Positions 14,157 through 48,029 of a stretch of 64,000 bases of DNA are shown piece by piece. The position numbers and the translations under genes were made by a program. The DNA lies in the NCBI RefSeq assembly GCF_000485595.1, contig NW_014577501.1:21739-85738 (forward strand), read 5' to 3'. The notes under the pieces are model-generated. The model was not told the origin of the DNA and searched no databases. It was given only the letters and a program-made list of their open reading frames with translations. The DNA is from Priapulus caudatus. Lineage: Eukaryota > Priapulida > Priapulimorpha > Priapulimorphida > Priapulidae. Every line of letters starts with the position of its first letter. Within the stretch, counting starts at the first letter, position 1.

Positions 14157-14211
14157 GTAGTAGCAGGAGTGTATCAAAATCAGCAGTGTTTTGATACACT
14201 CCTGGTAGTAG
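14157..14211. mobile_element. 41-bp palindromic micro-insertion with 7-bp duplication
   Basis: The palindrome at 14164-14204 has 16-bp arms (CAGGAGTGTATCAAAA and its exact complement) around a 9-bp centre. The 7-mer GTAGTAG flanks it on both sides (14157-14163 and 14205-14211), although the local GTA-rich context weakens that evidence. It belongs to the CAGGAG/CARRAG family described in the findings. Confidence 0.7.
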
Positions 14212-15149
14212 CAGTAGCAGCAGCAGCAGCAGCGACACTGACAACAACAAATAAACGGCAATACAACAATAATTATCATCGCTGTGACTACACGAATGGT
14301 TTGCTAATTTTATGAAACTAAAAACAAAACAAACAAAAATAACAGTTAGTTTTCAGTTTAGTTCACTTAGTTTCAGTATGGTAATGCTTGGAAGTTTTTT
14401 TGTCATAATCACAACTTTAACTCAATACATTGGCACTTAAAAACAGATAGGTATACATGCCTCGCAACTAATATTAAGCACGGTTCCAAAGCAATTTTCT
14501 ATTATAAGTAAAATTTACTGGAAATAGAAAAACTCTCCTCACACTATGTAGACAATGAAAGAAAAGATTCCTGCAACATTGCTATTAATATATTATCGCA
14601 TATTAATCAGTTGCCTCTCACCATCACCTTCCCTCCTTATGCAAACTATACTATACACACTTAAGATCCTAATTCAACGTCCAAGACATTAGATGATGGT
14701 GATGATTGAAGTCTACTGCAAGCATGGTTGGGAGAATGTGTGCTATAGCTCTTTCCAAATGAATATGTGTCGTGGACTACGTATGCGCATGCAGTGGCGA
14801 TGGCAAACATAAACCTACAAATATACCCTTTTCATACTGAAAACCATCAGTTTCCTCTGATCCAGGACACTTTCCGAATTACCTATGTGACTCAAATCTC
14901 TTAGACTGGCGATTGAGAGACACACAGTAGGAAATTAAGATAACTCTATTACACACTAAAGAAACTTGATGAATAATGAATCAATCTTTATAGCACAAAA
15001 ATCTCTGTTTCTGTTTTGAATCATACTCTGTTCACAATACTACAGCATTTACTGCTGCCAAGAGCATGCAACGATGGATAGGATATAGACAGTATGTCTA
15101 CGGCAACAATGGAACTACTTTAGGTTGCTACCCATAAGCACGCATTGTA

Positions 15150-15522
15150 AAGCCTAGCGCAGACTTGCGACTTTTGATTGCTCGTCGCTGCAACCTGCAA
15201 CCGCATGCGATCGGACGCACGCTTCACCGTGTATGCGCATGCAAGCGACTGCTGTTAACAGCAGTCGTTTCTTTCCATTCTCTTTCCATTGTCTTCCCAT
15301 GACTTATATTACCCACACACATGCGATTTCGGAGCGATTCCGAGCGACCAGTTGCTGAAAATCAAACCGGTTTGATTTCTTGCAACTTGTTGCAAGCGAC
15401 CAGAATCGCTACGAGTTGCAGTTGCACGTTCCCGCAGACTTGCGACTTTTTCATGCAACTCGGCTGCGATTCTAGAATCGCAGCCAAGTTGCATGAAAAA
15501 GTCACAAGTCTGCGCTAGGCTT
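15150..15522. mobile_element. inverted-repeat element with a long internal hairpin
   Basis: The termini AAGCCTAGCGCAGACTTG (15150) and the inverse at 15505-15522 agree except for small changes. TA precedes the left end and A-rich DNA follows the right, suggesting a TA-type target. The right part is itself a near-perfect palindrome with arms 15434-15474 and 15475-15515. No coding capacity. The right terminal repeat was probably duplicated and inverted. Confidence 0.65.
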
Positions 15523-16067
15523 AATGGTTCATGTCTCCATAAAATACTGAGGCAAATATTTTTAACTCAGATATTAACCTTATAAATTTCACTTCCTCAC
15601 ATATAGGCCATAAATATTGCACAAAAGATACTTATATGAAAATTATAATTTATCTGCCTATACCGGCCTATTTATAAGCAGCACTTCCACGAGCAGTTTA
15701 ACAATTCGACATTTCTCAGATACAACTATACGTTTCTGTTGCATAACGACGTGTGAGCATCATCTGTTACCAAAATATTGACATACCTGTATGGACAGAC
15801 GAGACGACAAGATGTAAGAAACTTATTCTCACTGTCGTCACAGACTTAGGCATTATCCTTCACCGACGTGCAATCACATCTAGTGAACCTAAACTACCTT
15901 CACCTGCCGACACTGCGGTAAATCGTTCGAAAGCCCACTAATATCTAACGGCTGCTCGCATGCACCCGGTAACCCTGATGACCAAAGTTCACACCTGATG
16001 CACCGAATATTAAATGCTATGTCGCGTGCGACTGCGTTGACGGCCGTGGCACGGGCACGTCCACCGA

Positions 16068-27524
<11,457 letters not shown>

Positions 27525-27610
27525 TACGAAACTGTGACAGTTTACCAAAATTAATTTTGAGCACGTTACACATTAAATTGAACAGTTTCATAGCGAGCCA
27601 AACTAGCTAG

Positions 27611-28412
27611 GTTTTATCAAAAGTAGATAATAGGGAAGGAGTGTGACTTCAATAAACAAGGGAAATTCGTCATTTACTAGCCTTAGAATACCTACGATTT
27701 ACTACGCGTAACTCAACCAACTTGAGCTCAAATCGTACACAGTACATTCGCCTAGCATCGTGCGAAATCGTTTCCTCGTATACACCAGCAATCCGGAGAT
27801 ACAGACTAAAACGTACGACACAATTATCCATTCTTTGGCCATCAATCCGAACGTATTCCTCGCCGAACTTAAAACAAAATACAGCTACTAATGCATTCTT
27901 GCTCACTCGGCGAGGCGGTGTGGCTCGCTGGAAGATTGAAGCTGGAGCTGCTGCTGATTGCAGTAGGCGTGCGTGCGTGGGAGGCATACCAGCTGTATGC
28001 CGGTATGCCGGTATGCCGGTATGTAGCTGTGTGCCAGGTCAAAGGTTATCTCGCCGAGTGTTGCGTCGATGTCCAATCTCCTAGCGAGCCACACCGCCTC
28101 GCCGAGTGACCAAGAGTGCGTTAGTAGCTGCCTTTTGTTTCGAGTTCGGCGGAGAATACGTTCGGATTGATTGCCAAAGAATGGATAATCGTGTCGTACG
28201 TTTTAGTCTGTATCTCTGGAGTCTGGATTGCTGGTGTATACGAGGAAATGATTTCGCACGATGCTAGGCGAATGTACTGTGTACGATTTGAGCTCTTGAA
28301 AGTTGGTTGAGTTACGCGTAGTAAATCGTAGGTATTCTAAGGCTAGTAAATGATGAATTTTCCTTGTTTATTGAAGTCACACTCTTTCCCTATTATCTAC
28401 TCCTGGTTTTAT
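27611..28412. mobile_element. 788-bp palindromic element with 7-bp duplication
   Basis: Arms of roughly 300 bp (27618-27932 and 28083-28405) are inverted copies with scattered changes, around a loop that contains three GGTATGCC units. The ends are CAAAAGTAGATAATAGGG and the inverse of CAGGAGTAGATAATAGGG. Exact 7-mers GTTTTAT flank it (27611-27617 and 28406-28412). It lies just upstream of the PCYT1 start codon, so it probably separates the promoter from distal sequence. Confidence 0.8.
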
Positions 28413-28543
28413 CCATCACATGCAATTGCACCTTTTAATATTCAGAGAATGCATCAAGGTATCAGGCAATTAAAGACATTCGCTTATTAACTGAACATGT
28501 AATATTGTGTCATGTTATAAATATTACAGGGAGAATTACTTAC

Positions 28544-28637
28544 TGTGTTGTACTTGCCAGCTGGTATCGCTATGTATTTGTCTTCCTGTGAAATAAACTA
28601 GCTTTTCAAAGTCGAAACCTGCTTCCGATTCTTGTGC
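28544..28637 (-). CDS. candidate isolated exon, unrecognised
   Basis: A 94-nt minus-strand segment is bounded by a TCTGTCATTCAG acceptor and a strong ACA|gtaagt donor. The phase-0 frame is open for 31 codons and reads AQESEAGFDFEKLVYFTGRQ followed by IHSDTSWQVQH. Composition is protein-like, but I do not recognise the family and find no partner exon on either side. It may belong to a gene whose other exons have been displaced, be an alternative exon, or be chance. Confidence 0.25.
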
Positions 28638-29264
28638 CTGAATGACAGATACATCAATAAGTAATTATTACTGTTTAAAACATTATACACATAACCAGTC
28701 TTAAAACATGTAATTGTAAAAGCCAATACCTTGCAACCATAATACTAAACTTTGAACATTTTAGCCTTGAAGGAAATACAACAGCTTGATTAACAAAATT
28801 GCTGTCTCATTAGTTAAATATAAATATTGGCACAAATATAAGGCAGTCTACAGTACAAGGCATCACGTTCTTCATAATCACCATTCACCTATTGCACGTT
28901 TTTTCAAAACACATATATTAATGTCTGTATACATACAAAGAGTCCACTTTCCTGACATGTTTACCTGTCATGTCGCAAGTGATTCTTAGTACACATTGTA
29001 TCTCCATACACAGAGATTGTGGTTGAACCTATGCCACGAGATCTATATTTGGATTTGGTATGTACATGTGTATTTTACAGTATCAGAATCCATCTCGAAA
29101 TCGATTACCATACTGATTATAAAGATATGCTATGGCAACGCTGCACAACTAAAAATCTATATTTATTATATTAAGAGACTAGACATAATAAACTATCAGA
29201 GTTTATTATCCTGATGTGAAAAAATTGCTAAATTAAGTAAATGAACTACTGACATGTACCAGAT
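28638..29264. other. AT-rich intergenic DNA
   Basis: No exon, repeat family or RNA gene seen in this stretch. Confidence 0.4.
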
Positions 29265-30810: not shown

Positions 30811-31189
30811 CCCAGATATTCAATCGCTGTTTTCAGCCAGCTTTAAATGCCAGCTAGTGTGGTAAACACAGATATGGAAATGATCCTAATATACCTCAAT
30901 ACACAAGACTCATTAATAAACTAGTCTGCTACCACTCAATATCATATTAATGATCAATGCTTCATTCAGTCATACCCGAGTTCTACAAGGAAACTTTTAT
31001 GCCTGGCAACCCGCCAGGCTATCAGTCAGAGCCACCGCCATACCTAAGAGCCATCTAGACCAATCTATTCATAGCCCCATGCTCACATATCATAGCCCCG
31101 GCGCCCCCCTAGCACGCAAAGCGCCTTCGGCGATTTGCCAAACTAGGACCGTCAAGGCAGCACCCGCCATGCTATAATGAATGAAGCCA
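30811..31189. other. spacer between repeats
   Basis: A GC-richer patch around 31000-31180 is open on the plus strand but resembles nothing I know. No exon supported. Confidence 0.3.
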
Positions 31190-31330
31190 TCTCAATCCAT
31201 CAATGACACGGTAGCTCACCACAAAAAAAGACACAAATGAGTGAGTGAGAAGAAGTCAGTTTAACTGAGGCACCCATCGACGTACATTATACTTAGTAAA
31301 ACAAAGAGTAGATATGGGAGAACTCCCTTG

Positions 31331-31382
<52 letters not shown>

Positions 31383-32150: not shown

Positions 32151-32300
32151 AAAGCTTGGAGAACCCTGTCACATAGTCAACATACCATAACAGATATTCA
32201 CTAGGTGACTGGAATTCTATTTGAACGCATTTTCGGTATCCTTTATTTACTGTAGAAAAAATAATCATAGATAGTCGTAACCAAAAATATCATATCTACC

Positions 32301-32357
32301 ATTTTATCAAGAGCTCATAATAGAGAAATAATCTCTATTATGAGCTCTTGATTTTAT
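32301..32357. mobile_element. 43-bp palindromic micro-insertion with 7-bp duplication
   Basis: Arms of CAAGAGCTCATAATAGAGA (from 32308) and their exact complement (to 32350) surround a 5-bp centre. Flanks are exact 7-mers ATTTTAT (32301-32307 and 32351-32357). Its ends match the 112-bp element at 47286-47397. Confidence 0.8.
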
Positions 32358-33342
32358 GTAACCCTGACTGTTACTCTAGGGGGCAATGTATAAGATGCCC
32401 ATAAGAAACGCCCATAACATGTAGCACATGTATATGTACAAAAGAATTTCTTGCAATTCTGCCTCTCGGCTAGACTTCAATGTACATACGAGCTTGTTTA
32501 TAAACCAGACTTTATTGTACAAATTAATATAATGTAAAACAACTTCTTGGTTCTGTGATTACCGTGTTCAAGGTGTCTGTGCCCTCAGTTTGGCATGATT
32601 ACTAATTTAGGTTAAGCCCTGCCCCATCTACAGTCAGTATAAGGAGTGTACTGCCATGAGCTCGTTTAGGTAGCTACGATTCTGTGTATGAGGTTGCTTA
32701 AATCGTTAAAATATATATATATACAGGGTTCAACATTAACTTTTTATTTCACTAGACCATCGGGCTAGTAACGGAGGAAAACCACTAGCCCTGACTAACT
32801 TACACTAGCCCAGACCCAGACCATTGTTATGGAAAACTTTAATTAGATAAGAGTGTGTCATCGTATGAATTCATAGATGCTGTTTCCCGCGCTTTAAATC
32901 GCGCGTGGGCCGAGTTCACGTGCAGCATTCGTATTCTACCACGGGCATACACGAGCGCACGGTTTATCGATCGTCTACTGCGGCTGGCAGCAAGCCACGT
33001 TATTGTTTTTGCCGAAGGGTAGACTGGTATCCGGCCTCACGCTCTGCTAGACAATGCACACGCTCTGCGACAAAGTGCGGCCGCGAGCCAGAGGTGACCT
33101 TTCAGTGCAATATATATGACCAATTCTAACACGACCAGTCGGGCTACTAGCGGTTCCAGTTAGGACCACCACCCCACCCCCTCACTCTCTCTCTCCCCTG
33201 CATCCGCCTGCAGCATCCGAATACGTGCCTATCTACGGCACGCCTTTCAATCCATCATGAGCGTTTTTCTCCCAAACTGGCCATTACCTCCTTTGTCTAA
33301 TTTTCCCTTAGAAGAAACCCTGGACTAGACATATGGCTTTAC
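32358..33342. other. intergenic DNA, no gene seen
   Basis: Contains a short (AT)n run near 32711-32722 and a GC-richer patch at 32885-33130 whose open frame has no recognisable similarity. Confidence 0.4.
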
Positions 33343-33768
33343 ATTATATCAGAAGTAGATAATACTAATAGGGAAGGAGTGTGACTTCAATAAACAAAGG
33401 AAATTCGTTATTTACTAGCTTTAGAATACCTACGATTTACTACGCGTAACTCAACCAACTTGAGTTCAAATCGTACACAGTACATTCGCCTAGCATCGTG
33501 CGAAAACGTTTCCTCGCAGATACAGACTAAAACGCACGACACGATTTTCCATTCTGTTGCCAGCAAACTCGATGTGTTAACCGCCTAACTCGAAACAAAA
33601 GGCAGCTACTAACGACTCTTGCGCCCTCGGCAATGCGGTGTGGCTCGCTGAGCTAACCTTTGACCTATTTACAGCTGCCTTTTGTTTCGAGTTCGCCGGA
33701 AAATACGTTCGGATTGATGGCCAAAGAATGGATAATCGTGTCGTACGTTTTAGTCTGTATCTCTGGAA
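33343..33768. mobile_element. deletion derivative of the 27611-28412 palindrome
   Basis: Starts CAGAAGTAGATAATA at 33350 after the 7-mer ATTATAT. It shares with 27618-28405 the segments around ACTACGCGTAACTCAACCAAC and ATACGTTCGGATTGATGG, but most of the right arm is missing. It ends abruptly in GTATCTCTGG, where the LINE-like repeat arm begins near 33769. Confidence 0.65.
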
Positions 33769-35515
33769 AGGCTGGGGAAAGGAACCGGTCACGTCGGTGA
33801 CGCCCCATTCATGCCCATCAACGAAGAAGGCGGGGCTTATTCTTATTACGGAGATGCTAAAATGCAACAAAAGTACGTAGCTTAGTGCGCTAAACGACGT
33901 GTTATTTTCGTTTTTGTGCAAAACTCTATCGTAGGAAACCGTTCTAGCCTAGCAGAATGCCCTAGTTCGTGAGATCGGCGATTCCGTGCCGTAATAGTTA
34001 TTAGAGCTGGAAGTTTGTATATAAGGGGGCGGCGTAGACTGTGATTGGAAGACACAAAGTGTCAATCCTCGGCGAGCGCCTCGGGATCATGGCCGCGTTA
34101 CGTCAAGCGAGCGTCGAGCGAATTTTGGCAGCACGCTTTCCTACCTGCTACATATTTATATGTCAGTGTGCAGCAGCTAGCGTGCGGTGTACTTGTGTGT
34201 TGCAGATGAGCATTTGACCGGCATTTACAGGTGATTATAGGCGAAATAGAGTAGAGAAACATTAAGACTTTGGTAGTAAATACCTTTTGTGTTTATTTAC
34301 CTTCTTTTTTTATTGAGACGTTCCAAATGTCTGTGAAGATGAGGTTACAAGGTATACCATTTTATACTGACTTGTTCAAGTTATTGTCAATGTCATTGAA
34401 TTTGAAGTTATTGACATGATATTGTATTTCAAATTCACAATAAACAAATGACGTGAATATTCTTCCGACTCCCGAGCACCAGAAACGCGTTCGTTTGCGA
34501 TATTGCGAAAAAATAATGTGGAAGAAAGAAAAGATAAGAAAAAAAGAATAATGCATAATTCCAAGTAAAACTTCAAGCCCGGTGCACACGTTTTACTCAA
34601 GTAAAATGATGCATGCGTCAAAATACTCACGTGTGCGCCTGATTTTCGTAGAGTTTTCTGACGCATACATCAAAAACTCAAATCACACATGTTAGATGAT
34701 TTTTGACTCGTGCATCAAAATGCTCAACGTGTGCGCGCTAGCTGCATAAATTTACTCAACAGTGGTACTCACAGCGTATGCGTTTAAATCATTTTAAAGA
34801 TGACTGTGCCCAGTATTGGCTGCGCACAGTCACGCGATCTACATTACCACATACCTTGAGTAATTTTACTCTTGTTTGCGGCGGACGCTGAAAATATTTC
34901 GCGTGAGTACTTCGACTCGTGCATCATTTTACTTGAGTAAAATTACTCACGTGTGTGCTGGGCTTTAGGCACATGCCTTCCCGGCACAAAATTACTTTAT
35001 TACAAAATGTGAAATATTAACACCTCATTTCCATAAACCTCATAACCTCAATCATAAATATTAGTCTCCAAAGCCCAAGCTTTGAGGATATATATCGAAG
35101 TATGACCTATACCTATATCGAAGTATAGTGCTAACAACACTTCCGATACTCCATGATTCATGGAAAATAGCTCTCAACAACCAGTTTCTGATACATGGAA
35201 AGATATCTCAACCGAATATGTTGCTAGGAAACACCTATATCCTAGTTTAGCACCTTGGATTAGTTTAGGACATTTGCGAAAACACATTTGCGGTGTCCCA
35301 AACTAGAATTGTGCAGTGCAAACAAAGCGCTTCTAGTACTGTACGTAGTACATACTCTATGGTGCTCGGACAAAGTAGCTCTGAACAACCAGTTTCCAAT
35401 GCTCGGAAAGATATCTCAACTGAACGCATTTTCGATGCTTGGAAGAATATCCACGTCGACAGACACAACTTGCTTAAAATATTGTATGTACCGTTTGTAC
35501 ACATAAATCTGTGCC
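33769..35515 (+). repeat. left arm of a long inverted repeat
   Basis: This arm matches the reverse complement of 39233-40659 over its length, apart from about 340 bp replaced by the N gap at 40494-40518 in the other arm. Differences are single-base indels and substitutions. The first part (to about 34110) is also shared with 2085-2330. The arm is made of transposon-derived DNA, including the element at 34573-34968. It borders the block that carries the misplaced POLA1 exon. Confidence 0.85.
34573..34968. mobile_element. MITE-like element with GTGCACACG ends
   Basis: Left end AAGCCCGGTGCACACG, then ACTCAAGTAAAATGATGCA; the right end carries the inverse (TGCATCATTTTACTTGAGT, ACACGTGTGTGCTGGGCTT). 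The interior repeats CTCACGTGTGCG-type boxes. A full inverted copy sits at about 39790-40180 in the other long arm. No coding capacity. Confidence 0.65.
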
Positions 35516-36154
35516 AACCTTTTTACCAGACAACTTCAGTACTTCACCCAGCTACAAACTTTACGCGTAAAATTATAATTCGCATAAATATATAAATATA
35601 AATTCGTATAAATATTCTTCTGCATATAAAGCGAATGCGTGTCATTTCTGTTTGTGTTCGTCATTGGTCCAGTGCATTGTAGCGCGCAGTGGAATAAATC
35701 GATATCATAACACACGCAGCTCTGCGTACGTACGTATCAGTGTTCGAAATATAATTACCAGGTAATGACCCTGTGACCTTGACCTTGGGTGGAAGTGTCA
35801 GAATCAATAGGGTTCTCTCGCCCCATAGGATGCAACTGTGGACCAAGTTTGAAGTTTCTACCTCTTACTCTTACGGTTGCAAAAATATCGAGCGGAAAGA
35901 CACACAGACATACACACCGCCACATACACGAAACCAAAACGGCCATGAAAACAATATCCTCCGCGGCACTGCGTGCGGAGGATAACTACTTGTACTTCGT
36001 CGAGTAGAGGTGTTCGTATGGTTAGCATGTGTTGTGACTAGCGTGTATTGTGTGTGCGTGTTGACAGTATTGTGAGTACACGGCGTTACGTTTTACGTTT
36101 GGAGCTTTATTTCGATATTAGTTCAATAAAGTGTAGTTTATTGATGGAAGAACA
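35516..36154. other. repeat-bearing spacer
   Basis: Within it, 35755-35990 resembles a repeat with TGACCTTGACCTTGGGTGG, an ACACACAGACATACAC run and a hairpin ATCCTCCGC...GCGGAGGAT at 35956-35983. No gene is seen. Confidence 0.4.
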
Positions 36155-36260
36155 ATGATTTTCGTCAGCGAGGCGGTGTTTTGGGATAAATTTCTGTGTA
36201 GCGGCTGAGAAATTGAGCGAGGCAGCCGCCTTGCTCGTGTCAATGCAGGGGAAACACTGC
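36155..36260 (-). repeat. segment shared with the element at 57760-58619
   Basis: The reverse complement matches about 58025-58135, including TTTCCCCTGCATTGACACGA and CACCGCCTC. This suggests a fragment of the same hAT-like family, although no terminal repeats are seen here. Confidence 0.6.
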
Positions 36261-37034
36261 GTGTGCATGCATATATGCGGGAATGATGTGATTGCGATCG
36301 GGAATGGTTGGCTGGCAAGTCAAGCGTACACAATCGCTATTGCAACTGCATAGCCGAGACAGACATTGCGAGTTTTGCAGCAGTTTTTGCAGCTGCGGCT
36401 GGCTTGTGTAACCAATGATAATGCCTTGACTTCGAGGCGTGCAATTTCAGGGGCGATTTCGAACAGTTTTCTTTTTAACTGTCGCCCCCGTAATCACATT
36501 TTCGCGAGCTCTTTTTGGAACTTCGGGGGCGATTTCGCCCGCCGCCCCCGTGTATTTTTTTCACTGCTCCACAGGTACTTGAAACAAGCTAAAATATACG
36601 GTCCGAGGATCCGTATAATATAATATTATTATATATAGGCTATAGTGATATCCAATAACAAGCAAATTATCCACTTCAGATTATAGAAGAGGAGTTTATA
36701 TTTTAGACTGCGCGCAGCGCAATCTCGAGTTTGCAGCGCAGTCTGCCGCTTGATAGATTGTGCTGCAAGATCTTAAAAATGTGCAGTGCGATCTTGAAAT
36801 AGTGCAGATCGGAAGATTGCGCGCAACATATACACATAATGATGAATTATTCGAGTGGTGCATACACAGTATTAACCTCGTTCCTACACTGGCACGGAGT
36901 TTCATTTCCTAGAAAATAACAGGAGCCGTGGTGATTATAATATATACATGTCATGGGGAATAAAAGCCGACCAGCGAGACAAGGCAGTGACAAGATATTT
37001 CCTGTATACCTAGGCTATGACATTCATAATATCA
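36261..37034. other. intergenic DNA, no gene seen
   Basis: Contains short repeated boxes (GGGGCGATTTCG near 36450 and 36526; GTGCAG/GATCTTGA near 36700-36810) but no recognisable exon. Confidence 0.4.
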
Positions 37035-37408
37035 GGGTGCAAAATTAACGGGAGTCCAGAGTCAAATACTCCCTGATTTACTGTCGGACTCCCTGATTTG
37101 ACATATGCAGGAGTCCGTGTAACTCCCTGAAAATTCTGCCATACTAACTAGTTCAGTTCTGGAGCACGGCCTCGCGGAATTACTGTATTTTTTCAGCTAA
37201 TGACTAAATGAGTAATGTACAAAGAAAATTTGGCAGACATGCAACTGCATGCATCTTAAAAATAAGCACATGCGTTATTGTTAATATCATTAATTTTGAA
37301 CCTCAGTCTGCAGACTCACTCATTTTACTGCGGACTCCCTGTTTTTGAAGGTAGGGAGTCCGTTGCCGTTGGACTCCCTTGTTCAAAAGTCAATTTCTAC
37401 CCCTGTAA
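37035..37408 (-). repeat. dispersed GGGAGTCC element, copy 2
   Basis: Inverted relative to the copy at 6285-6680 and in the same orientation as 59984-60268. It lacks the 20-bp expansion. It starts near GCAAAATTAACGGGAGTCC and ends near AAAGTCAATTTCTACCCCTG. Confidence 0.7.
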
Positions 37409-37631
37409 TATGATAGAATTTAGAACGACTAGCTCTAGCACTTTAGTAGTTTCTATTCCACTACATTTCGTAATGCGGAACGACGAACACCACACCACGG
37501 CAGAGGGATAAAGTGTCTGAGTGAGCGCAACAGCACCTCATCAGGCTCGATCTCATCCCATTCAAATAACCCGATTAACCGTCCTGATAGCCGATGCCTA
37601 CACACACAGTCATGTGACGATGTGTCATAAG

Positions 37632-37826
37632 GAGCGTTCACACGGACACAGGCACTTGAAGCGTTTCACCTGTAAACACACGCTGCCGCCATTGCTGCTG
37701 CGCTCACTGACATATAAATATATAGTGTATATATTTATTATATATTTATGTGTCAGTGAGCGCAGCAGCAATGGCGGCGGCGTGTGTTTACAGATGAAAC
37801 GCTTCAAGTGCCTGTACACACGAACG
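37632..37826. mobile_element. near-perfect palindrome with GCGTTCACACGG ends
   Basis: Arms at about 37635-37722 and 37728-37825 meet in an AT-rich centre. The outer part carries AGGCACTTGAAGCGTTTCA, which also occurs in related form in the palindrome at 42909-43292 and near 43480-43505. It has the shape of a MITE without a loop. Confidence 0.7.
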
Positions 37827-37849
37827 TTTTTGGCCCGAGCCTAATTAGG

Positions 37850-38040
37850 GCTCAGAGGGTCTATGTCCCGCGAGGTACTGCCAGAACGTGCCCTGGGTAC
37901 GGTCCGGTATACCGGAACGTACCCTGGTACTATCTAATATGCCGTACCGTACCTCGCCTACTCCCTAACCCTAACCATATTAGATAATTACCAGGGTACG
38001 TTCCGGCAGTACCCTGGGGGACATAGACCCTATGAGCCTA
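37850..38040. mobile_element. palindromic GGGTCTATGTCCC element, copy 1
   Basis: Ends AGGGTCTATGTCCC and its inverse enclose GGTACTGCC, CCTGGTACTATCTAATATG and a CTCCCTAACCCTAACC core. Two more copies occur (44525-44808 and, truncated, 48141-48635). The 11-mer GAGCCTAATTA flanks this copy on both sides, though it overlaps a palindromic sequence. Confidence 0.75.
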
Positions 38041-38084
38041 ATTACATTATATATATATATATATATACATATATATTTATTTAT

Positions 38085-38440
38085 TTATTTATTTATATAC
38101 AAAAACTAGAAAGGGCAGTTGTCGCCAACTACACGTATCCCTCGTGTTCTTCCCAAGATGTGTAAGTATACGAAGTTTGGTCACGCTAGGTCAATTAGGG
38201 GCCGAGTTATAAAGCGGAAGGGGAATATGATGAAGGTCAAGGTCAATGTCAAATAAAGGTCGCAGTGACCTGGTTTTGGTACTCCGCTCAGCTTCTTTTC
38301 AAGATGCGTAAGTATACCAAGTTTGGTAGCGCTAGGTGAATTAGGGGTCGAGTTATAGAGCGGAAGGAAAATTGTCTGCGGCGGCGGCGGCTGGAGAGAC
38401 ATGAAACCATAGTATCCCCGCCGACTTCGTCGCGAGGGAT
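38085..38440. repeat. dispersed repeat with two AAGTTTGGT units
   Basis: Two related units (about 38150-38225 and 38300-38370) each contain GTAAGTATAC, AAGTTTGGT, GCTAGGT and GAGTTATA-AGCGGAAGG. A CGG run and the hairpin GTATCCC...GGGATAC follow at 38410-38440. Repeats of this style are common in marine invertebrate DNA; no protein is encoded. Confidence 0.5.
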
Positions 38441-38568
38441 ACAATAATGGTGTCTCAGCTACTAAATACTCAAGTCAAAATAAATTTATTTCCTATATAA
38501 TTGTATTGCATTATATTACATTATATTATGAAATGGTGATATCACACTGTGCATATATATATACTCAC

Positions 38569-38690
38569 CTCGTATTTGACCTTTTCACCAGTTAATTTGG
38601 CCTTTCTGATCCTTTCTAGGGCAATATTACGAGACTGTTTGCCCTTGCTCTCTTGTCGCCTCCCTCGACTTCTAGACGGGCCATCGGATT
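38569..38690 (-). CDS. POLA1: DNA polymerase alpha catalytic subunit, N-terminal exon on the wrong strand
   Basis: A minus-strand exon with a TTTTAG acceptor and a TACGAG|gtgagt donor encodes SDGPSRSRGRRQESKGKQSR followed by NIALERIRKAKLTGEKVKYE. This aligns with the basic N-terminal segment of animal POLA1 (an Arg-Lys-rich run, then ALERL-KKAK, GEK, KYE). It ends in phase 0, exactly as needed to join the first plus-strand exon at 45361, whose product [13 protein letters not shown] is the next segment in the family. But it is transcribed in the opposite direction, so it cannot be spliced to the rest in the arrangement shown. The block 35516-39232 that contains it is bounded by a long inverted repeat. 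The start-codon exon was not found. A CpG-rich patch at 39005-39105 lies on its 5' side. Confidence 0.85.
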
Positions 38691-39004
38691 CTAAAATATT
38701 AAATTGTAGATTCACGAGCCAACTGATTAAACTGATGAATCGTGACTCACGGTCAACAATGCAACCCAGCTAGTTGATATGGGAGCCTTCCTCACACTTG
38801 CAGCCTAAGTGAGAATATCTATATGTCTATAGTAAAAGTTTAACGTTTAAAACATTGTGTAGTTTTCACTAAAATTAGCACATCCGCATTTTTACTATAA
38901 TGGCTCTGTGGATTATTGTGCGGAAGATGTTACAGTTCTGATCTTGTGCCATCTAGTACATGATGTAATTTTTTATGTAATTTATGTATCCTTGTAATCC
39001 TCAA

Positions 39005-39105
39005 AAATTATCAGTTCTCGGCCGCAGCAGTTTCACGGCGAGTAAACGCCCGGGCGAAAACCATTTCGCCATCTATAAACAATCAACTTGCGCGCAAAGA
39101 GCCTG
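39005..39105 (-). promoter_or_regulatory. CpG-rich patch, possible POLA1 promoter
   Basis: About 100 bp with many CpG, including CGCCCGGGCGAAAA and TTGCGCGCAA, lies 5' of the misplaced POLA1 exon on that exon's strand. These resemble E2F-type sites only loosely. Position and composition are the sole evidence. Confidence 0.2.
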
Positions 39106-39232
39106 GTCCTTTAAGCACAAAAAGTATCAATCACGCATCTGTATATTGGTACAGTTCTAGTAGATGTGCATATTACTTCGTGATACATAAGGTGCATAAA
39201 ATCCATTATGTGCTTTGTACAGTTTACAATAG

Positions 39233-40659
39233 GGCACAGATTTATGTGTACAAACGGTACATACAATATTTTAAGCAAGTTGTGTCTGTCGACGTGGATA
39301 TTCTTCCAAGCATCGAAAATGCGTTCAGTTGAGATATCTCTCCGAGCATTGGAAACTGGTTGTTCAGAGCTACTTTGTCGAGCACCACATAGAGTATGTA
39401 CTACGTACAGTACTAGAAGGCGCTTTGTTTGCACTGGCACAATTCTAGTTTGGGACACCGCAAATGTTTTTCGCAAATGTCCTAAACTAATCCAAGGTGG
39501 CTAAACTAGGATATAGGTGTTTCCTAGCCAACAATTCGTTGAGATATTCTTTCCATGTATCAGAAACTGGTTGTTGAGAGCTATTTTCATGAATCATGGA
39601 GTATCGAAGTGTTGTTAGGCACTATACTTCGATATAGGTATAGGTCATACTTCGATATATATCCTCAAGCTTGGCTTTGGAGACTAAATATTTATGATTG
39701 AGGTTTATGAGGTTTATGGAAATGAGGTGTTAATATTTCACATTTTGTAATAAAGTAATTTTGTGCGCGGGAAGGCATGTGCCTAAAGCCGCAGCACACA
39801 CGTGAGTAATTTTACTCAAGTAAAATGATGCACGAGTCGAAGTACTCACGCGAATATTTCAGCGTCCGCCGCAAACAAGAGTAAAATTACTCAAGGTATG
39901 TGGTAATGTAGATCGCGTGACTGTGCCGCAGCCAATACTGGAACAGTCATCTTTAAAATGATTTAAACGCATAGCTGTGAGTACCACTGTTGAGTAAATT
40001 TATGCAGCTAGCGCGCACACGTTGAGCATTTTGGATGCACGACGTCAAAATCATCTAACATGTGTGATTTGATGTTTTTTGATGTATGCGTCAGAAAACT
40101 CTACGAAAATCAGGCGCACACGTGAGTATTTTGACGCATGCTCATTTTAACTTGAGTAAAACGTGTGCACCGGGCTTGAAGTTTTACTTGAATTATGCAT
40201 TATTCTTTTTTTCTTATCTTTCTTTCTCCACATTATTTTTCGCATATCGCAACGAATGCGTTTCTGGTGCTCGGAGTCGGAAGAATATTCACGTCATTTG
40301 TTTATTGTGAATTTGGAAATACTATATCATGTCAATAACTTCAAATTCAATGACATTGACAATAACTTGAAAACGTCAGTATAAAATGGTATACCTTGTA
40401 ACCTCATCTTCACAGACATTGGAACGTCTCAATAAAAAAAGAAGGTAAATAAACACAAAAGGTATTTACTACCAAAGTCTTATGTTTCTCTGGNNNNNNN
40501 NNNNNNNNNNNNNNNNNNACGAAATAACACGTCGTTTAGCGCACTAAGCTACGTACTTTTGTTGCATTTTAGCATTCCGCCTAATAAGAATAAGCCCGCC
40601 TTCTTCGTTGATGGGCATGAATGGGGCGTCACCGACGTGACGGTTCCTTTCCCCAGCCT
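39233..40659 (-). repeat. right arm of the long inverted repeat
   Basis: Reverse complement of 33769-35515 with an N gap (40494-40518) replacing the segment that corresponds to about 33912-34250. Past its end the repeat continues to 41701 as copy 2 of the LINE-like element, so this side is the longer copy of the same family. Confidence 0.85.
40494..40518. other. assembly gap (25 N)
   Basis: A run of N inside the right inverted-repeat arm. Sequence on both sides matches the left arm, so about 340 bp may be missing. Confidence 0.95.
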
Positions 40660-41701
40660 GTTTTCTTTTTGTAAATAATGAAATGCCGGCCGATGTATTT
40701 CGAATCGAACAGGAAAATGTTCTGCATTTTTACTTGCTGTCGGAAGTGAACGAGTGCGTCATTCATTAAACAATTCAATAAAACAACACAATTAATGTTC
40801 GGAGGCAAATCCGAGATAATGTTTACATGCCACAGCGCCATCTTGGTATGTTTTATAAGTTAATATGGGAATTTTCAATAAAATAATGCGTTTTTATATG
40901 TATTTACACCAATTTACGTATAGAAACTATATGTTATTTTTACTGATTTCTCCGTATTTTCCTTGGAGTTTTCATCGTTTTTAATGCCTTTCGGTAGGTT
41001 TTCTGCGTGATTATTATTTTACGCAGGCACTCATTTGGAAATCCTCCAACATTTTTACTTCTTCCTTAGTTAAGTTAGTCCATCTTTCACTGTTATTTAG
41101 GAAGGAAGGTCAAACTGTGCATTCGATAATTTTACTCTTGCTTCTATAGTATGATTTCCATAATTTGCTCTTCTGCCCACGCATAATATTTCCCTCATCA
41201 TGAACCTACATTTTTAAGTTCGGACTCTTATCATATCGTTATAACCTCCTATATCATTAATTAAATCCCCTAGTATGAAATATTGTTCTTGTGCATTTTT
41301 TTAATACTTGGTTGCTATTAAATTCTCTATCTTTTCTTTGTTTTGTGAATGTTATAACCTTTGTATTTGTTTTGTTCATATTAAATTCGAATCTTTTGAT
41401 TCAGCTAATCTGGAGAATGACTGACCAATTTTTTGTTACGGTTTTATAATCTCCAATTCCTACATATCGTCAATATATAATCATTGTCATCTTCTAAAAC
41501 GACAGACATCCGCTGACCGCTGTGGAGACGTGCACCGGGCCTCGAATTTGGCGCACGTCTCCACTGCGGGCAGCGCTTCATACTTGAACATCCCGCGGTC
41601 GCGTGCGCATATCCCGCGGAACTGCGCGTCTCATCCGCGCGCAGCGCTCAGGATCTACAGCAAGCTGGGCCACGAATCTTGTATCATGTCTCTCTGGATT
41701 T
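40660..41701 (-). mobile_element. degraded LINE-like repeat, copy 2
   Basis: Reverse complement of about 982-2060, including the reverse transcriptase remnant (about 40930-41480) and the GC-rich segment (41500-41701). The catalytic box here reads Tyr-Ile-Asp-Asp and the frame is broken by several stops. Confidence 0.75.
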
Positions 41702-41728
41702 TACGAATACAACACAAATATTCAACCA

Positions 41729-42205
41729 TTCTACTCCATCTTTGTTTCTATTGAAGAACAGTGTTCACTTGTTATAAAACATACTGTCTGTGTTTGTAAC
41801 CGAGCTGTGTCACGCGAAATCACACAAAGCCTGACGAAATTCTCGCGTTCGCTCCGTTGCGCAGTTTATGTAAAGGCTGCAAGTACAGGGCTATAGGCGG
41901 CGCACTGCATTTTGGGAAACTACCACGCTGCTTTCCAACTAACGTATGAGCCTCGTCAAAGCCGCCAGTGGAGCATTGCAAAAACGTTGCAGCGTTGCAG
42001 CGCAAAATGAGGTCCCGAAGAGCCCGGTGGGTATTCCTGATTCCGACAGCCATTTACATAAACTGCGCAACGGGAGCGAACGCGAGAATTTCGTCAGACT
42101 TTGTGTGATTTCGCGTGACACAGCTCGGTTACAAACACAGACAGTATGTTTGTATAACAAGTGAACACTGTTCTTCAAATAGAAACAAAGATGGAGTAGA
42201 ATGTA
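41729..42205. repeat. inverted repeat with 150-bp arms
   Basis: Arms 41729-41880 and about 42050-42205 are near-identical inverted copies (both carry ATTCTACTCCATCTTTGTTT read outward-in and CGAGCTGTGTCACGCGAAAT) around a 170-bp spacer. No target duplication seen; no coding capacity. Confidence 0.7.
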
Positions 42206-42427
42206 GATCTATAGGAATAACCATTTGTCTCTGACGCATTGGATGCGGGACAATGCTGACAAATTCACAAAAGAAAGCGAGGCCATTTGTATTGACCTGT
42301 GCGCCATTTAACGAGCAATTAAATAAACCTGCTCTAGAATGGTTGAATATTTGTGTTGTATTCGTATGAAATCAAGCGAGCGTCGAGCGAATTTTGGCAG
42401 CACGCTTTCCTACCTGCTATATATTTA

Positions 42428-42575
42428 GGCCATGGCTACGCGACCGGTTCCGGACGAGAAGCCGCTAGGCTACGCGTCCGGACATCCATCTCACACAGTG
42501 ATCTTGCAACACGTACACGCATGATTGCGCAACGGGACATTCTGCTGATTGCCGAGTGTGTGTGTGTGTGTGTGT

Positions 42576-42618
<43 letters not shown>

Positions 42619-42679
42619 GGAATGTGTATGTGTGTGTATGCGTGAGAGAGAGAGAGAAGAGACTTGTGCGTGTGTGTGT

Positions 42680-42711
<32 letters not shown>

Positions 42712-42897
42712 CGAGAGAGGACGGATGAAAGATACGACGGCAGCAGTGCATATTGTATATTTTCCGACAATCAGCAGAGCGTCCGCGTGTGCAATCATGC
42801 GTGTACGCGAGTCGCGCGATCACTGTGTGAGTGGATGCCCGATGCGCAGCCTGGAGGCTAGGCGACAGGTTCCAGACACGTAGCCACTGCGATATAG
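42428..42897. mobile_element. inverted-repeat element with microsatellite loop
   Basis: Left arm 42432-42556 and right arm 42765-42895 share inverted boxes (GGCTACGCG/CACACAGTGATC and CAATCATGCGTGTACG). The loop (42556-42720) is made of (GT)n and (GA)n runs, the source of spurious Ser-Leu or Thr-His frames. Confidence 0.65.
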
Positions 42898-42908
42898 TTA
42901 TGCACAGG

Positions 42909-43292
42909 CACTTGGGTTGTTTCAATAATAAAATGATGGTTAATGAATACAACTTGTCAGTACTAGATACCAGTACCAGTAATAGTCTTAATATTTGATT
43001 TGACCTAATAATTCACTTCAATACCGTCCAATACACCGCTGCAACACGCATTTCCTATAGCGTGCCGCCATTGTGCACAAATACACAGTAATATAGGGTA
43101 TATACTATATTACTGTGTATTTGTGCACAATGGCGTGCGCATAGGAATGTGTTGCAGCGTGTATTTGGACGGTTTGAAGTGAAGTTTTTAGATCAAATAA
43201 ACATTAAGACTATTACTGGTACTGGTAGGTCTAGTACGGACAAGTTGTATGTATTAACCATCATTTTATTATTGAAACGGCCCAAGTGCCTA
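42909..43292. mobile_element. 384-bp full palindrome
   Basis: Inverted symmetry runs from GGCACTTGGGTTGTTTCA at the left edge to its inverse at the right edge, with the centre near 43103 in TATACTATATTACTG. Arms differ by a few bases. Such a loopless palindrome could extrude a cruciform and is hard to clone or sequence. Confidence 0.7.
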
Positions 43293-43510
43293 AGGCTATG
43301 TATTTATGTGTCAGTGTGCAGCAGCTATAGCGTGCGGTGTACTTGTGTGTTGCAGATAAGTATTTGGACGGCATTTACAGGAAATTGTCGGCAATAATAG
43401 GTGAAAGAGAGTAGAGAAACATTAAGACTTTGGTATTAAATAGATTTCGTATTTATTTAGCATTATATTTTATTGAAACGCTCCAAGTTGAACTTGAAGT
43501 GCCTGAGGCT

Positions 43511-44524
43511 GTGCTCGTCTTCAGTTCAATTTCAAAGTCCAAGGGAATTAGGGACGGGTGTATCGAAGACGGATCACTATTCACCGAGTAGTGCGTGAGT
43601 ACAAAAGATTTACGGTGTTTGGGAACATTTGAGCTTTCTTATAACTTAATACTGCCAAATACATTCAAAATATGGATTTTAAAGTGGTAAACTTAAGTAA
43701 TAATAGTAAATACCTGGAGTGTTATTGCCATCTTCACCTGGCGCCCATTTTACAGCATACAAAACACCTCAAAATTTGGCGCGAAAAGGTTTGTAGTAAT
43801 TTTGCGATGCGATAACATTGTTTTGTAAATGAATATAATTAGCTTAATATATTAGCTAGCAAAGTAAGTATATTCAGCTACATATATACAAAGTTATGCT
43901 TGAAATCTATTGCTTAAACCATAAAGATAATTTATGAGATATTTCTTGTATCCATGTTTCCAAAACACAAGTACTGCGTGATGAATCAGCCATAGCCCGT
44001 GAATCAGCGTGATAACAACGCTGGCAAAAGAACTTGGGCAAAAGTCATGGCAAAAGTACACAACGGAGAATGAGTCGTGTCACTGTGTGATGATGAGTTG
44101 ACTATAAATTATAATCGATCGGCATTGATGATGTAAAACACCAACCTGAGCAAGTATTGAAGTAAGGCATATCATGTATTAGCGGTAGCCGGTACCGTAG
44201 GCCTACTGTCACTGTGTCGCTGTCACTGACGCTCAAGGGGTCGGTGTCGTAACGTAACAGGTATATATGTACCCGAGGTACATATATCATATGTATACAC
44301 AAAGTGTACCAGACTTGTACTACAGAAATGTACCCTAACCCTAACACTAACCCTAATCCTAACCCTAACAATCTAACCCTAACCCTAACCCTAAACATAC
44401 CTCATATAAAAATATAACATAATACTAAACAACTAAAACTACCTCGGGGTACATATCTGTAGTACTGTTACGACAACGACCCTTCGTGCGTCACTGACAC
44501 TGTCACTGTCGCAGCGTCGCTGAT
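43511..44524. other. spacer with telomere-like patch
   Basis: No exon seen. An AACCCTAACCCTAA patch occurs at 44335-44400, between two copies of a GTACATAT/TACCTCGG-type inverted sequence (about 44260-44335 and 44440-44470). Confidence 0.5.
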
Positions 44525-44808
44525 AGGGTCTATGTCCCCCGGGTACTGCCGGAACGTACCCTGGGTACGCGGTCGGATATCCGGAACGAACCTGGTACTA
44601 TACTTATATATGCCGGACCGTACCTAGCCTACTCCACTAACGAGTCTAGGGAGTCGCCTACGCCTACTCCCTAACCCGAATCGAACCCTAAACCTAACCC
44701 TAACCCTAATCCTAACCCTAACCATATCAAATAGTGACCAGGGTACGTTCTGGTATACCGGACCGTACCCAGGGTACGTTCCGCAGTACCTGGGGACATA
44801 GACCCTAT
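44525..44808. mobile_element. palindromic GGGTCTATGTCCC element, copy 2
   Basis: Longest copy; the core carries CTCCACTAACGAGTCTAGGG and runs of CCCTAA. Flanks GCGTCGCTG and GCGTCACTG form a probable 9-bp target duplication. The inverted ends match the copy at 37850. Confidence 0.75.
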
Positions 44809-44827
44809 GAGCGTCACTGTCACACCA

Positions 44828-45215
44828 ACGCGTTCACACGGTCATGGTTTGGCTCGAGCCAAATGGGCTATAAATTTGGCTCGGGCCGGTTTGAGTCGGA
44901 GCGTTCACACGTACGCAAGTGAATACTGTGTGTCAAATTCAAATTTAAATTCAAATAAATCCGAGTACAATTATCAATCTTGAAACGTGCATCCTGATCA
45001 AATTTTTCGAATTTTTATACTGTTTTGGACTTTATTTGTCGAAGTACACGGTTCGACACTCGCGGCATCTACGCGTCAAACGATTCTACCGCCTCACCGC
45101 TCGCGCCCGAAGCTGGTGCTAAAATTTGGCTCGGGCCTGGTCCGACGTTTTCGATGGACCAAATTGGCTCGTGCCAAATTGGCATGGCCCCGAAAAACGT
45201 CGTGTGATACGCTCG
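44828..45215. mobile_element. MITE-like element with GCGTTCACACG ends
   Basis: Left end ACGCGTTCACACGG with TTGGCTCGAGCCAAAT; right end inverse CGTATCACACGACG with TTGGCACGAGCCAA. The interior repeats TTTGGCTCGGGCC boxes in both directions. No coding capacity. It lies between the displaced POLA1 exon and the rest of the gene. Confidence 0.6.
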
Positions 45216-45360
45216 GCTCGCAGCGCAAATCTGGCGTGGCTATATTTTATATATGAGTATAAATAATATTGCCATTAGGATTAAACTAGTGCAGTAGTGT
45301 ATAATATAGTTGTTTTTCATTTAAATTACCACAGTATTGCTATATTTTTGTTCCACGTAG

Positions 45361-48029
45361 GTCAAAGAGATACAGAGTGTATACGATGAGGTGGCTGAAC
45401 GTGACTATTGTGATTTGGTGCAGCAACGGCAGGAGGATGATTGGATTGTTGATGATGGTGAGCAATCTCCACTAAAAATCTTCCCCAATTTGATTTTCTT
45501 CTCCAAAACAGATTGAAACGATATTAATGGGGAAAAGTTCCCAAAGACAAGGAAGAAGAGGGAGAAAAGAATAAGAAACAAGATAGAAAAATTCAAGTGA
45601 TAAATAAATGATTTATTTGTATGTTAACAAATTTTAATTGCTCGAATTCGTTGTAATGTTAATTAGCAGTATGTGTCATTCACTCATGTATATATCTGAT
45701 TTCACAGATGGCAGTGGATACGTTGAAGATGGAAGAGAGATTTTTGATGAGGAGGCCAATGAAGACGAGCTTGCGAGCAAAAAAAGTAAACTGAAGTATT
45801 TTTCACAATTTAGAGTTTAGTTTTTGAGTTGTCGGCCTTTATATTAGTATAAAATATGTGTTGTGAATGGTATTATTTCATATTTGAGTCATTTGATTCA
45901 TACACATGATAATCAGTTGTAGACATGACTGAGTATATAAATTTCAAGATTAAATTCAATTAAAAATGCATTTTCAATACTAGAGAAGTTTAAAGGCGAT
46001 GCAAGAAAACACACAGGTGGAGCATCGGGGTTGGACCAAGAAAAACCTGCTGTCAAGTCACGAAATATAAAAAACATGTTCATGGCTGGGAGTGCAAAGC
46101 AAAAAGTTAAATCTGAGGTATATTTTGTTTCACATATAATATATCACTTGCTCAGTATTTGTAATTAAATTACTTATTATACAAGCTGCATGCCATTAAA
46201 ATTTAAATGCAATATATGCATATGTATCCCTTTCACTCTGTACACTACTGACTAGATGGCATAAAGCCTAAATTGCTACAATCTGTCTGGTAATCGTTCA
46301 CCTTTTCTATTTAGAAAAAACTCGACCAGGAAGGTGGTAATGTTTTAGAAGATATCCTTGGAGAGTTAAAAAATCCAAAGATATCTCCTATGGTTGCTGG
46401 AGGGATGGTTCGAGTGTCTAAATCAGTGAAACACAGGTAGGCAAAATATTTAGATTTGAATATTTGAAATCAGAGTCTATTGTTATGGTATTTGTGTATA
46501 CGTGGGGTGTGTGGAGGTCAATTTAAAGTGGGCATCTGAAAATTACTTGCATTTCATGCTGGAATAGCAATCATATATAACATAAATCCCAGAGCTGTAA
46601 GCCTAGTTACAAAGACAAGAGACTGTGTTTGGGTTACCTGTCGAGTTTGTTTGTCCACAAAATTCACCATTGCATGTACTCTCGCTGCTACAAGATTAAG
46701 TAAAATGTCATTAGTTCTCAGAGGCTGTGTGCACATGTGACAATAATATAAAAGAGAATTAGACCTTTAATCTATCCATGATCTCGAAGCATAAGCATAG
46801 CACTCACCACGACGATAACACATTTCAGAAATGTAGTCTGCTGTCCAACAAATTTTAATGATTTGGCGTTTTAGGCCGGTAAACCCGTTTGCTACGAAAC
46901 TGTCGGGAGGTGCAAAGTATGTGGCATTGCCGAGAACGCAGCAGGCACCGACACCGACGGTGACAACAACACCAAAACGCTGGGCATCACTGCCAGTGAA
47001 CCAGCCAGGTCGCAGTAAAGGGAAGACGAGAGGAGCGGTGAAAACGGCAGACGAGGACCTGGAGGAATTAGACAATGTCGACTACATGAACTCGCAGCCT
47101 GATGTCAAAGTTGGCACGAACGAGATATTGGAGAATAAACCTGGTTAGTGGTGAATGATCAACGTTTTCTTTAAATAGTTTTTAATAGTAAATAGTTTTT
47201 GCTCCTGGTACTATCTTATTTGACACAGTGTTTTCCGATAAAATCATACTTTGGCAGGGCGATAGCTTGAACATATCCATACAATCAAGAGCTAATAATA
47301 TATAGTGTATAACAGTATAACGGGAAATGGGAAAATATTGGTGTAAAATAGCAGTATTTTCTTGTTCTCCTATTATACACTGTATTATGAGCTCTTCATA
47401 GAATGTATAGATGTGCTCATGGTAATAAGAACAGTATAGTAGGTAGTAGTAGGTAGGAACTGTTCGTGAATAATGCTATCTATTTGCTTTGATTAATTGA
47501 GCTTGATGTTTGCAGATGTAGATAGAACGAAGCCAGAGATGATGCTAGAGGACATCAATTTTGAGGATGGCGCTTTTGAGGAGTCATCTTCAGCAGAAGC
47601 TAGAAAGATCGACGATCAACAGCTTACAGAAATAGATTCAGTGGCACCTACTAAAGTTGATAAAAGGCATGTTTGCTTTAGCTGTAAAGCTAATACAATT
47701 GATCTACTTTAACCAATAATACCAACAGTCGCAAAATGATCTTGCTAATACTTTTCAGATCTAAAACATTAGTATTAAACCTTTGGAGAAGCCCTAGCAA
47801 TTTGTTAAACATCTTTTATTTTCATCAAGGTGGGCCCCAGAAGAGAAGAAATGGGAGACCGGGTGGGAGGTATGCAAATCTTCGACAGATGACATCAACG
47901 AAGCCAATGATAGGACTGTCACCGTTCAGGTTGACAGTTTGACATTGCCGACAGTAACCAACGAGAGTGGGGACGAGGTGTTACGGATGTTCTGGCTTGA
48001 TGCATATGAAGACCCGTTCAAACAGACAG
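45361..48029 (+). CDS. POLA1: POLA1 N-terminal regulatory region (seven exons)
   Basis: Encodes [20 protein letters not shown], then DWIVDD, then [13 protein letters not shown], the acidic conserved N-terminal motif of the family. Next comes [12 protein letters not shown] (where human has the KSMF segment) and [10 protein letters not shown] (human LLGDILQDL), the neighbourhood used for catalytic-core interactions. A low-complexity proline/threonine stretch lies in 46875-47143. The last exon holds [19 protein letters not shown], which begins the folded N-terminal domain. The intron at 47667-47829 opens with GC. Confidence 0.93.

What the first reader, a model, noticed from the sequence alone, without database searches (positions are those of the whole stretch)
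14157..47404. A family of palindromic insertions, 32 bp to about 0.84 kb, with 7-bp target duplications fitting RTNNNAY
Seen directly: at least six intact loci share ends CAGGAG/CAGAAG/CAAGAG/CAAAAG and their inverse, each between 7-bp repeats. Exact repeats: GTAGTAG (14157), ATATTAC (21033), ATTACAT (23817), GTTTTAT (27611), ATTTTAT (32301). One-mismatch pairs: ATGATAT/ATAATAT (24938) and ATACAAT/ATAGAAT (47279). ATTATAT precedes a truncated copy at 33350. Most fit RTNNNAY, a symmetric target, as expected for a transposase dimer cutting with a 7-bp stagger. Established: hAT duplications are 8 bp and Tc1/mariner uses TA, so 7 bp is unusual; P-type and Dada elements are candidates from memory. 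Inference: one transposase family mobilises all size classes, including end-to-end fused minimal forms.
Basis: partly seen in the sequence, partly recalled or inferred. Interest (0 to 1): 0.88.

Follow-up and report, generated by a model that had tools for sequence, protein, structure and literature searches.

The report
Excision scars of P-like jumping genes
The tiny palindromes scattered through this animal genome look like the healed wounds left where P-element-like jumping genes were cut out and the broken ends rejoined, so they record past DNA repair rather than being miniature jumping genes themselves.

Summary
In detail: all five exact 7-bp repeats and both one-mismatch pairs are at the stated places. 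The family is genome-wide. One strict pattern finds 1903 short palindromes and none in the reversed control. Of 49 checked with flanks, 34 have an exact 7-bp duplication, 6 one with a single mismatch, 7 an exact 8-bp one, 2 none. The target is palindromic, about TACATAWTATGTA.

Long family-A elements are mobile MITEs. In the 26-58-bp palindromes, arms stop at or before base 20 of the A terminal repeat: 28 of 28 arms and 35 of 36 broken ends in a second sample. All 32 junctions with a non-palindromic centre of 2 nt or more differ from one another. This is a ceiling, not the floor a mobile mini-element needs, and it matches published P-element excision junctions (17-nt tails plus filler).

Best reading: in-situ end-joined excision scars, probably thousands, of a P-superfamily-like transposon cut about 20 nt inside its ends. 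A P transposase flanked by these ends was not found in 9 loci.

The parts
14157..14211 (.). Short palindrome (scar-like) 14164-14204, 41 bp, arms 16 + filler TCAGCAGTG, between GTAGTAG copies (14157-14163, 14205-14211)
21033..21078 (.). Short palindrome 21040-21071, 32 bp, arms 15 and 17 of the A end joined without filler, between ATATTAC copies
23817..23883 (.). Palindrome 23833-23876 (22+22) plus a 9-bp tandem repeat CATCAGGAG across the duplication/element boundary (element 23824-23876), between ATTACAT copies
24922..25818 (.). Older 40-bp palindrome (24929-24944 + 25788-25811) split by insertion of the 836-bp element; own flanks ACAAAAT / ATGAAAT (5 of 7)
24938..25787 (.). 836-bp family-D element 24945-25780 between ATGATAT / ATAATAT
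27611..28412 (.). 788-bp family-A foldback MITE 27618-28405 between GTTTTAT copies; its first 143 bp has 1271 first-look candidates genome-wide, 40 of them scored
32301..32357 (.). Short palindrome 32308-32350, 43 bp, arms 19 + filler AATAA, between ATTTTAT copies
33343..33767 (.). Truncated family-A copy from 33350, preceded by ATTATAT; CTAAT insertion at base 15-16 of its left end
47279..47404 (.). 112-bp element 47286-47397 between ATACAAT / ATAGAAT; last base C, not G

Best explanation
Two things share the same ends. (1) Mobile, apparently non-autonomous P-like DNA transposons of roughly 0.5-0.84 kb, some of them near-complete foldbacks, insert at a palindromic AT-rich target (TACATAWTATGTA) and duplicate 7, sometimes 8, bp. 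(2) The 26-58-bp palindromes are the scars of such elements. A transposase cuts one strand at the element edge and the other about 20 nt inside. The element leaves, and each broken donor end keeps up to 20 nt of the terminal repeat as a 3' tail. The two identical tails are joined, directly or with filler partly copied from the tail itself. The result is duplication + <=20 nt + filler + <=20 nt + duplication. When repair first copies part of the element back, longer truncated or end-scarred copies result. Shown: duplications, target, ceiling at base 20 in family A, unique centres among those sampled, partly copied filler, long copies with duplications. Inferred: the staggered cut, the strand polarity, the end-joining pathway, and a P-superfamily transposase as the enzyme. 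The confidence given is for the scar mechanism; the enzyme's family is a separate question (third rival).
For: Ceiling: in 14 A-type palindromes (of 51 given) the 28 arms end at 15 (2), 17 (2), 18 (3), 19 (6), 20 (15), none beyond. In a second listing, of the first 100 printed of 1213 A ends, 56 continue into the element, 8 belong to another end type, and 36 (33 places) break with last match at 16 (7), 17 (4), 18 (3), 19 (9), 20 (12), 21 (1; its other strand reads 20). Fetched long A copies with both ends continue GGAGTGTGACTTC past base 20, allowing single changes. Unique centres: 32 of 32 junctions with a centre >=2 nt are distinct; repeats occur only in joins with 0-1 nt. Copied filler: 11 of 36 direct-orientation matches at p<=0.05; L068 filler repeats 17 nt made of its right end plus two flank bases. 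Duplications and target. Long copies: of 9 fetched, 7 closed within 1 kb; 2 have exact 7-bp and 4 exact 8-bp duplications, 3 of the latter in AT runs. Precedent: Drosophila P excision leaves 17-nt tails, and the sequenced junctions shown include 8-bp duplication + up to 17 nt + filler + up to 17 nt + duplication (passages). P superfamily members 1360 and Galileo duplicate 7 bp at GTTNAAC / GTATTAC. P-transposase domains are in this genome: 37 matches.
Against: No P transposase with CARRAG ends around it in 9 loci read. The ceiling seen here (20) is not the 17 of Drosophila P. Family D arms reach 22 and one F-type arm 21, so 20 is not universal. Only family A has a well-sampled continuation, so only there is the ceiling properly measured; some of the seven breaks at base 16 may belong to other end types. 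One A end breaks at base 30, and 6 of the 56 'continuing' ends first differ from the A sequence at bases 17-20. A first filler test found just 1 of 13 above shuffles. No empty site was found in the loaded sequence. Two of 49 palindromes and one of seven long copies have no duplication. Patterns imposed floors of 15 or 16 nt, so shorter scars were not counted.
Confidence: 0.82

Rival explanations
1. Minimal mobile elements: two terminal repeats fused end to end, themselves mobilised by the transposase.
For: Most have full duplications and 1903 fit one strict pattern; identical 40-bp forms occur at 4 sites with different flanks.
Against: Mobility needs a minimum end length (a floor); the data show a maximum. 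All 32 filler-bearing junctions sampled are different. Repeated forms are just the filler-free joins expected to recur.
Confidence: 0.07
2. Long foldback elements inserted and later collapsed at the centre by replication slippage or hairpin cleavage, without any transposase cut.
For: The 788-bp family-A element is near-palindromic over its whole length, and such repeats are unstable (general knowledge).
Against: Collapse should end anywhere along about 390-bp arms; breaks stop at base 20. Filler with copied tail sequence is not expected.
Confidence: 0.05
3. Same scar mechanism as the best explanation, but by a transposase outside the P superfamily (hAT-like, or a superfamily not yet described) that also cuts about 20 nt inside. 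This overlaps the best explanation and disputes only the enzyme.
For: No P transposase carries these ends in the 9 loci read; 20 nt differs from the 17 of P.
Against: 7/8-bp duplication, CA termini, RT...AY palindromic target and long tails together match what is reported for P, 1360, Galileo and Pdre2. Dada-U6 and Dada-U1 lack terminal inverted repeats. hobo (hAT) duplicates 8 bp.
Confidence: 0.2

Closest known systems
Drosophila P-element excision junctions (P{wa}; Chan et al. 2010, PMC2895639, passages and table rows seen)
   Same: Target duplication, up to a fixed number of terminal-repeat bases from each side, blunt, microhomology or copied filler between.
   Different: Ceiling 17 not 20; 8-bp not mainly 7-bp duplication; made in the laboratory, not fixed copies throughout a genome. 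Some of those junctions delete most of the tails through long microhomology, a class our patterns could not see.
Galileo (P superfamily; PMC4168063, PMC2775673, PMC3573991, passages seen)
   Same: 7-bp duplication with rare 8 bp, palindromic AT-rich target (GTATTAC), long foldback-like ends, many non-autonomous copies.
   Different: Longer ends (up to over 1 kb); no comparable small-palindrome class in the passages read; found in flies.
1360 (P superfamily; PMC3276498, table rows seen)
   Same: Modal 7-bp duplication, target GTTNAAC, which fits RTNNNAY.
   Different: No data here on its ends or scars.
Zebrafish Pdre2 / THAP9 (PMC10983969 and PMC7776569, passages seen)
   Same: Ends begin with CA; internally deleted copies around an animal P transposase.
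   Different: 13-bp ends CATACCTGTCAAC and 8-bp duplications.
Dada (PMC3706591, passages seen)
   Same: 6-7-bp duplication.
   Different: No terminal inverted repeats in the U6 and U1 families described; inserts in small RNA genes.

Membership tests
P superfamily | 7-8-bp target duplication | tested here: met
   34 exact 7-bp, 6 with one mismatch, 7 exact 8-bp (2 of these in AT runs), 2 none, of 49
P superfamily | Palindromic target of the RT...AY kind | tested here: met
   21 of 34 exact 7-mers fit against 1.4% background; base counts at 29 sites
P superfamily | Ends begin with CA | tested here: met
   CARRAG ends; Pdre2 CATACC, P CATGATG. The pattern itself required CA, but the motif-free scans also returned only CA ends at k=7, 5 of 5
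P superfamily | Long staggered cut, leaving terminal-repeat tails at the donor site | tested here: inconclusive
   Scar ceiling at base 20 in family A implies it; the cut itself was not observed
P superfamily | Autonomous member with these ends encodes a THAP/RNaseH/GTP-binding-insertion transposase | tested here: inconclusive
   P transposase domains exist in the genome, 37 matches, but none of 9 loci read (3.5-7.8 kb each, two reaching a contig end) has CARRAG ends around the gene
hAT | 8-bp target duplication | tested here: not met
   7 bp in 40 of 49, 8 bp in 7
Dada | No terminal inverted repeats, insertion in small RNA genes | tested here: not met
   Terminal inverted repeats present; dispersed AT-rich targets; Rfam found no RNA gene in the window; definition
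Tc1/mariner, piggyBac | TA or TTAA duplication (recalled) | tested here: not met
MITE (long family-A copies) | Short, high-copy copies with terminal inverted repeats and duplications, no transposase of their own | tested here: inconclusive
   1271 first-look candidates; the 40 best that were scored are 98-100% identical over the first 143 bp; duplications in 6 of 7 closed copies. Too short for a transposase, but no protein search was run on them

The most novel reading that the evidence does not exclude
The short palindromes are a natural archive of thousands of germline transposon excisions, each an independent end-joining event. They expose a transposase whose inner cut lies about 20 nt inside the element instead of the 17 nt of Drosophila P: either a divergent P lineage or a superfamily not yet described. 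The archive would let the end-joining habits of a non-model animal be read directly from one assembly.
Probability: 0.6. Interest if true: 0.72.

Novelty: new variant of a known kind. Interest (0 to 1): 0.62.

Why it matters
Short palindromes like these would easily be filed as tiny MITEs. If they are excision scars, copy counts of 'mini-elements' count repair events, not mobile DNA. The cut position of an unknown transposase can be read from sequence alone. One genome may also supply thousands of independent, naturally occurring double-strand-break junctions of known starting structure, a kind of data otherwise made one by one in the laboratory.

Tried and rejected
Rejected: mini-elements as mobile units (ceiling, unique centres); centre collapse of foldbacks (same reason); Dada; hAT, Tc1/mariner and piggyBac on duplication length; chance.

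Led nowhere: searching nine P-transposase loci (L075-L082, L099) for CARRAG ends; some searches listed a few other inverted pairs there, some with 7- or 8-bp flanks, none of this end type around the gene. Similarity of the A and D elements to L075-L082 (none). An empty site in loaded sequence (none besides the loci themselves). A first filler-template test, 1 of 13. Rfam on the window, none; tRNA, none. Literature searches (3 papers, none on this; 0 papers). Never answered: the PF12017 family search (65, 67, 70), the L031 DNA search (71, 73, 76, 79, 83, 85, 87) and the second-family pattern CAAGAGCTAATAATA + 19 N (128, 130, 131, 134, 137, 139, 140), so the ceiling is not replicated in a second family with a known continuation.

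Rows dropped or limits: none of the 49 palindromes was dropped before the duplication counts. One search printed 50 of 1903 elements: 49 were fetched, and the 50th was already inside L020 (exact ATATTGT). In one search, 8 of 100 ends were set aside as another end type; the 36 broken ends come from 33 places because three are listed on both strands. The pattern asks for a purine at base 35, which intact A ends have and only part of the broken ends will have, so the ratio of broken to intact ends is not a census. In one search only the 14 of 51 elements with an arm matching the A end to base 17 or more were used. The 'sequence after the break' in the template test can include the partner arm and flanking DNA.
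Full report
The window is part of a 385-Mb assembly in 2952 contigs. The organism was not identified.

Observation. Every duplication in the finding is where it was said to be. The four elements found by script with exact flanks match only at k=7 among k=5 to 10. A motif-free scan of the window for inverted 10-mers with exact direct flanks returned three k=7 cases, all of this family. Two hundred kilobases of stretches picked without regard to the motif held four more short members with exact 7-bp flanks, one similar element without (L028:8068) and one long family-A element, whose flanks ATGTACAC/ATGTAAAC differ at one of 8. A strict pattern finds 1903 short palindromes in the genome and none when read backwards. 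All 50 printed members were covered; 49 were fetched for the counts and one was already in hand.

Duplications. Of 49, 34 have an exact 7-bp duplication, 6 a 7-bp one with one mismatch, 7 an exact 8-bp one (two of these in AT runs where 6 bp also fits), and 2 none. Permuting right flanks gives a mean of 4.66 and a maximum of 12 matches with at most one mismatch at k=7, against 40 observed. The target is a palindrome wider than the duplication, about TACATAWTATGTA (29 sites, both strands counted).

Long elements. The first 143 bp of the 788-bp element has 1271 first-look candidates. Only the best 40 were scored; they are 98-100% identical, so at least part of this family (A) looks recent. Whole copies differ more: one from C40 aligns with the window copy at 82%. 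Of nine copies fetched, seven had both ends within 1 kb (505-768 bp); two have exact 7-bp and four exact 8-bp duplications (three of these in AT runs), and one has none. The 788-bp element aligns with its own reverse complement almost end to end (84%), so it is a foldback. It holds stop-to-stop frames of at most 142 aa; no protein search was run on it.

Short palindromes. If these were mini-elements that jump, their ends would need a minimum length and any one form would recur at many sites. The opposite is seen. In 14 A-type palindromes the 28 arms stop at base 15-20, 15 of them exactly at 20, none beyond, although fetched long copies continue GGAGTGTGACTTC, with single changes, and the pattern allowed longer arms. 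In a second, differently drawn listing (the first 100 of 1213 A ends), 56 run on into the element, 8 are another end type, and 36 break, 35 of them at or before base 20 and one at 21, which is the other strand of a scar already counted at 20. All 32 junctions with a non-palindromic centre of at least two bases are different sequences; the only repeated forms are joins with 0-1 base. In 11 of 36 broken ends the sequence after the break repeats the tail in direct orientation beyond shuffles at p<=0.05. An earlier test on 13 fillers found one: L068, whose filler repeats 17 nt made of its right end and the first two bases of its flank. In the window, 23824-23876 has a 9-bp tandem repeat that crosses from duplication into element, best explained by repair or slippage after insertion at that site.

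Mechanism. Drosophila P transposase cuts at the element's edge on one strand and 17 nt inside on the other. Published P{wa} junctions include 8-bp duplication, up to 17 nt of terminal repeat, filler or microhomology, up to 17 nt, duplication; others lose most of the tails through long microhomology, a class the patterns here could not detect. The palindromes here have the same architecture with 20 in place of 17. I therefore read them as end-joined excision scars made where they lie. Copies with a small insertion at base 15-16 of one end of an otherwise long element (window 33350, L016, L093) fit repair that copied most of the element back before joining. Two of these share the same CTAAT insertion, so a scarred end probably stayed mobile (inference).

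Kinship. Length of duplication, symmetric RT...AY target, CA termini and long tails fit the P superfamily. Its members 1360 and Galileo duplicate 7 bp at GTTNAAC and GTATTAC, Galileo rarely 8. The Dada families described have no terminal inverted repeats. P-transposase domains occur 37 times in this genome, one in an 827-aa open frame. But none of nine such loci has CARRAG ends around the gene; the stretches read were 3.5-7.8 kb and two reach a contig end, so more distant ends are not excluded. So 'works like P' is well supported, while 'is P' is probable and unproven.

Limits. The ceiling is measured properly only in family A. Family D arms reach 22; C, F and E arms stop at 19-21 without a known continuation. 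No empty site was found in the sequence loaded and no relative genome was available. Papers were seen as listings or passages, as marked. Searches showed, among the papers they listed, none whose title or displayed start of abstract describes genome-wide P-type scars; several of these listings were capped and most subscription papers are not in that library.

Noticed in passing
L016:2266-3592: A 1327-bp element with CAGGGGCGGCG ends and an exact 7-bp duplication GATACAG sits inside a family-A element; the ends look hAT-like (recalled) but the duplication is 7 bp.
   Followed up: partly
window 24922-25818: A long family-D element has inserted into an older short palindrome of the same kind, whose ATGATAT stretch resembles the preferred target.
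   Followed up: partly
L081:5457-5602: Inverted pair CAAGAGATCCGGTATTT spanning 146 bp, just past the end of a duplicated P-transposase segment, without a matching duplication.
   Followed up: no
L075:1737-4217 (-): An 827-aa open frame with P-transposase HTH, RNase H, GTP-binding-insertion and THAP9 C-terminal domains near a contig end.
   Followed up: partly
L078:2040-2098: A 59-bp scar-like CAAGAG element lies a few hundred bases upstream of a P-transposase segment.
   Followed up: partly
window 17563-19540 (-): Overlapping open frames resembling a non-LTR retrotransposon reverse transcriptase (FADDT motif, recalled); no family search was run.
   Followed up: no
window 52995-54064 and 41777-42151: Other long inverted repeats (63-nt arms 100% and 79-nt arms 99% complementary) that did not come up as CARRAG elements with duplications.
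   Followed up: no
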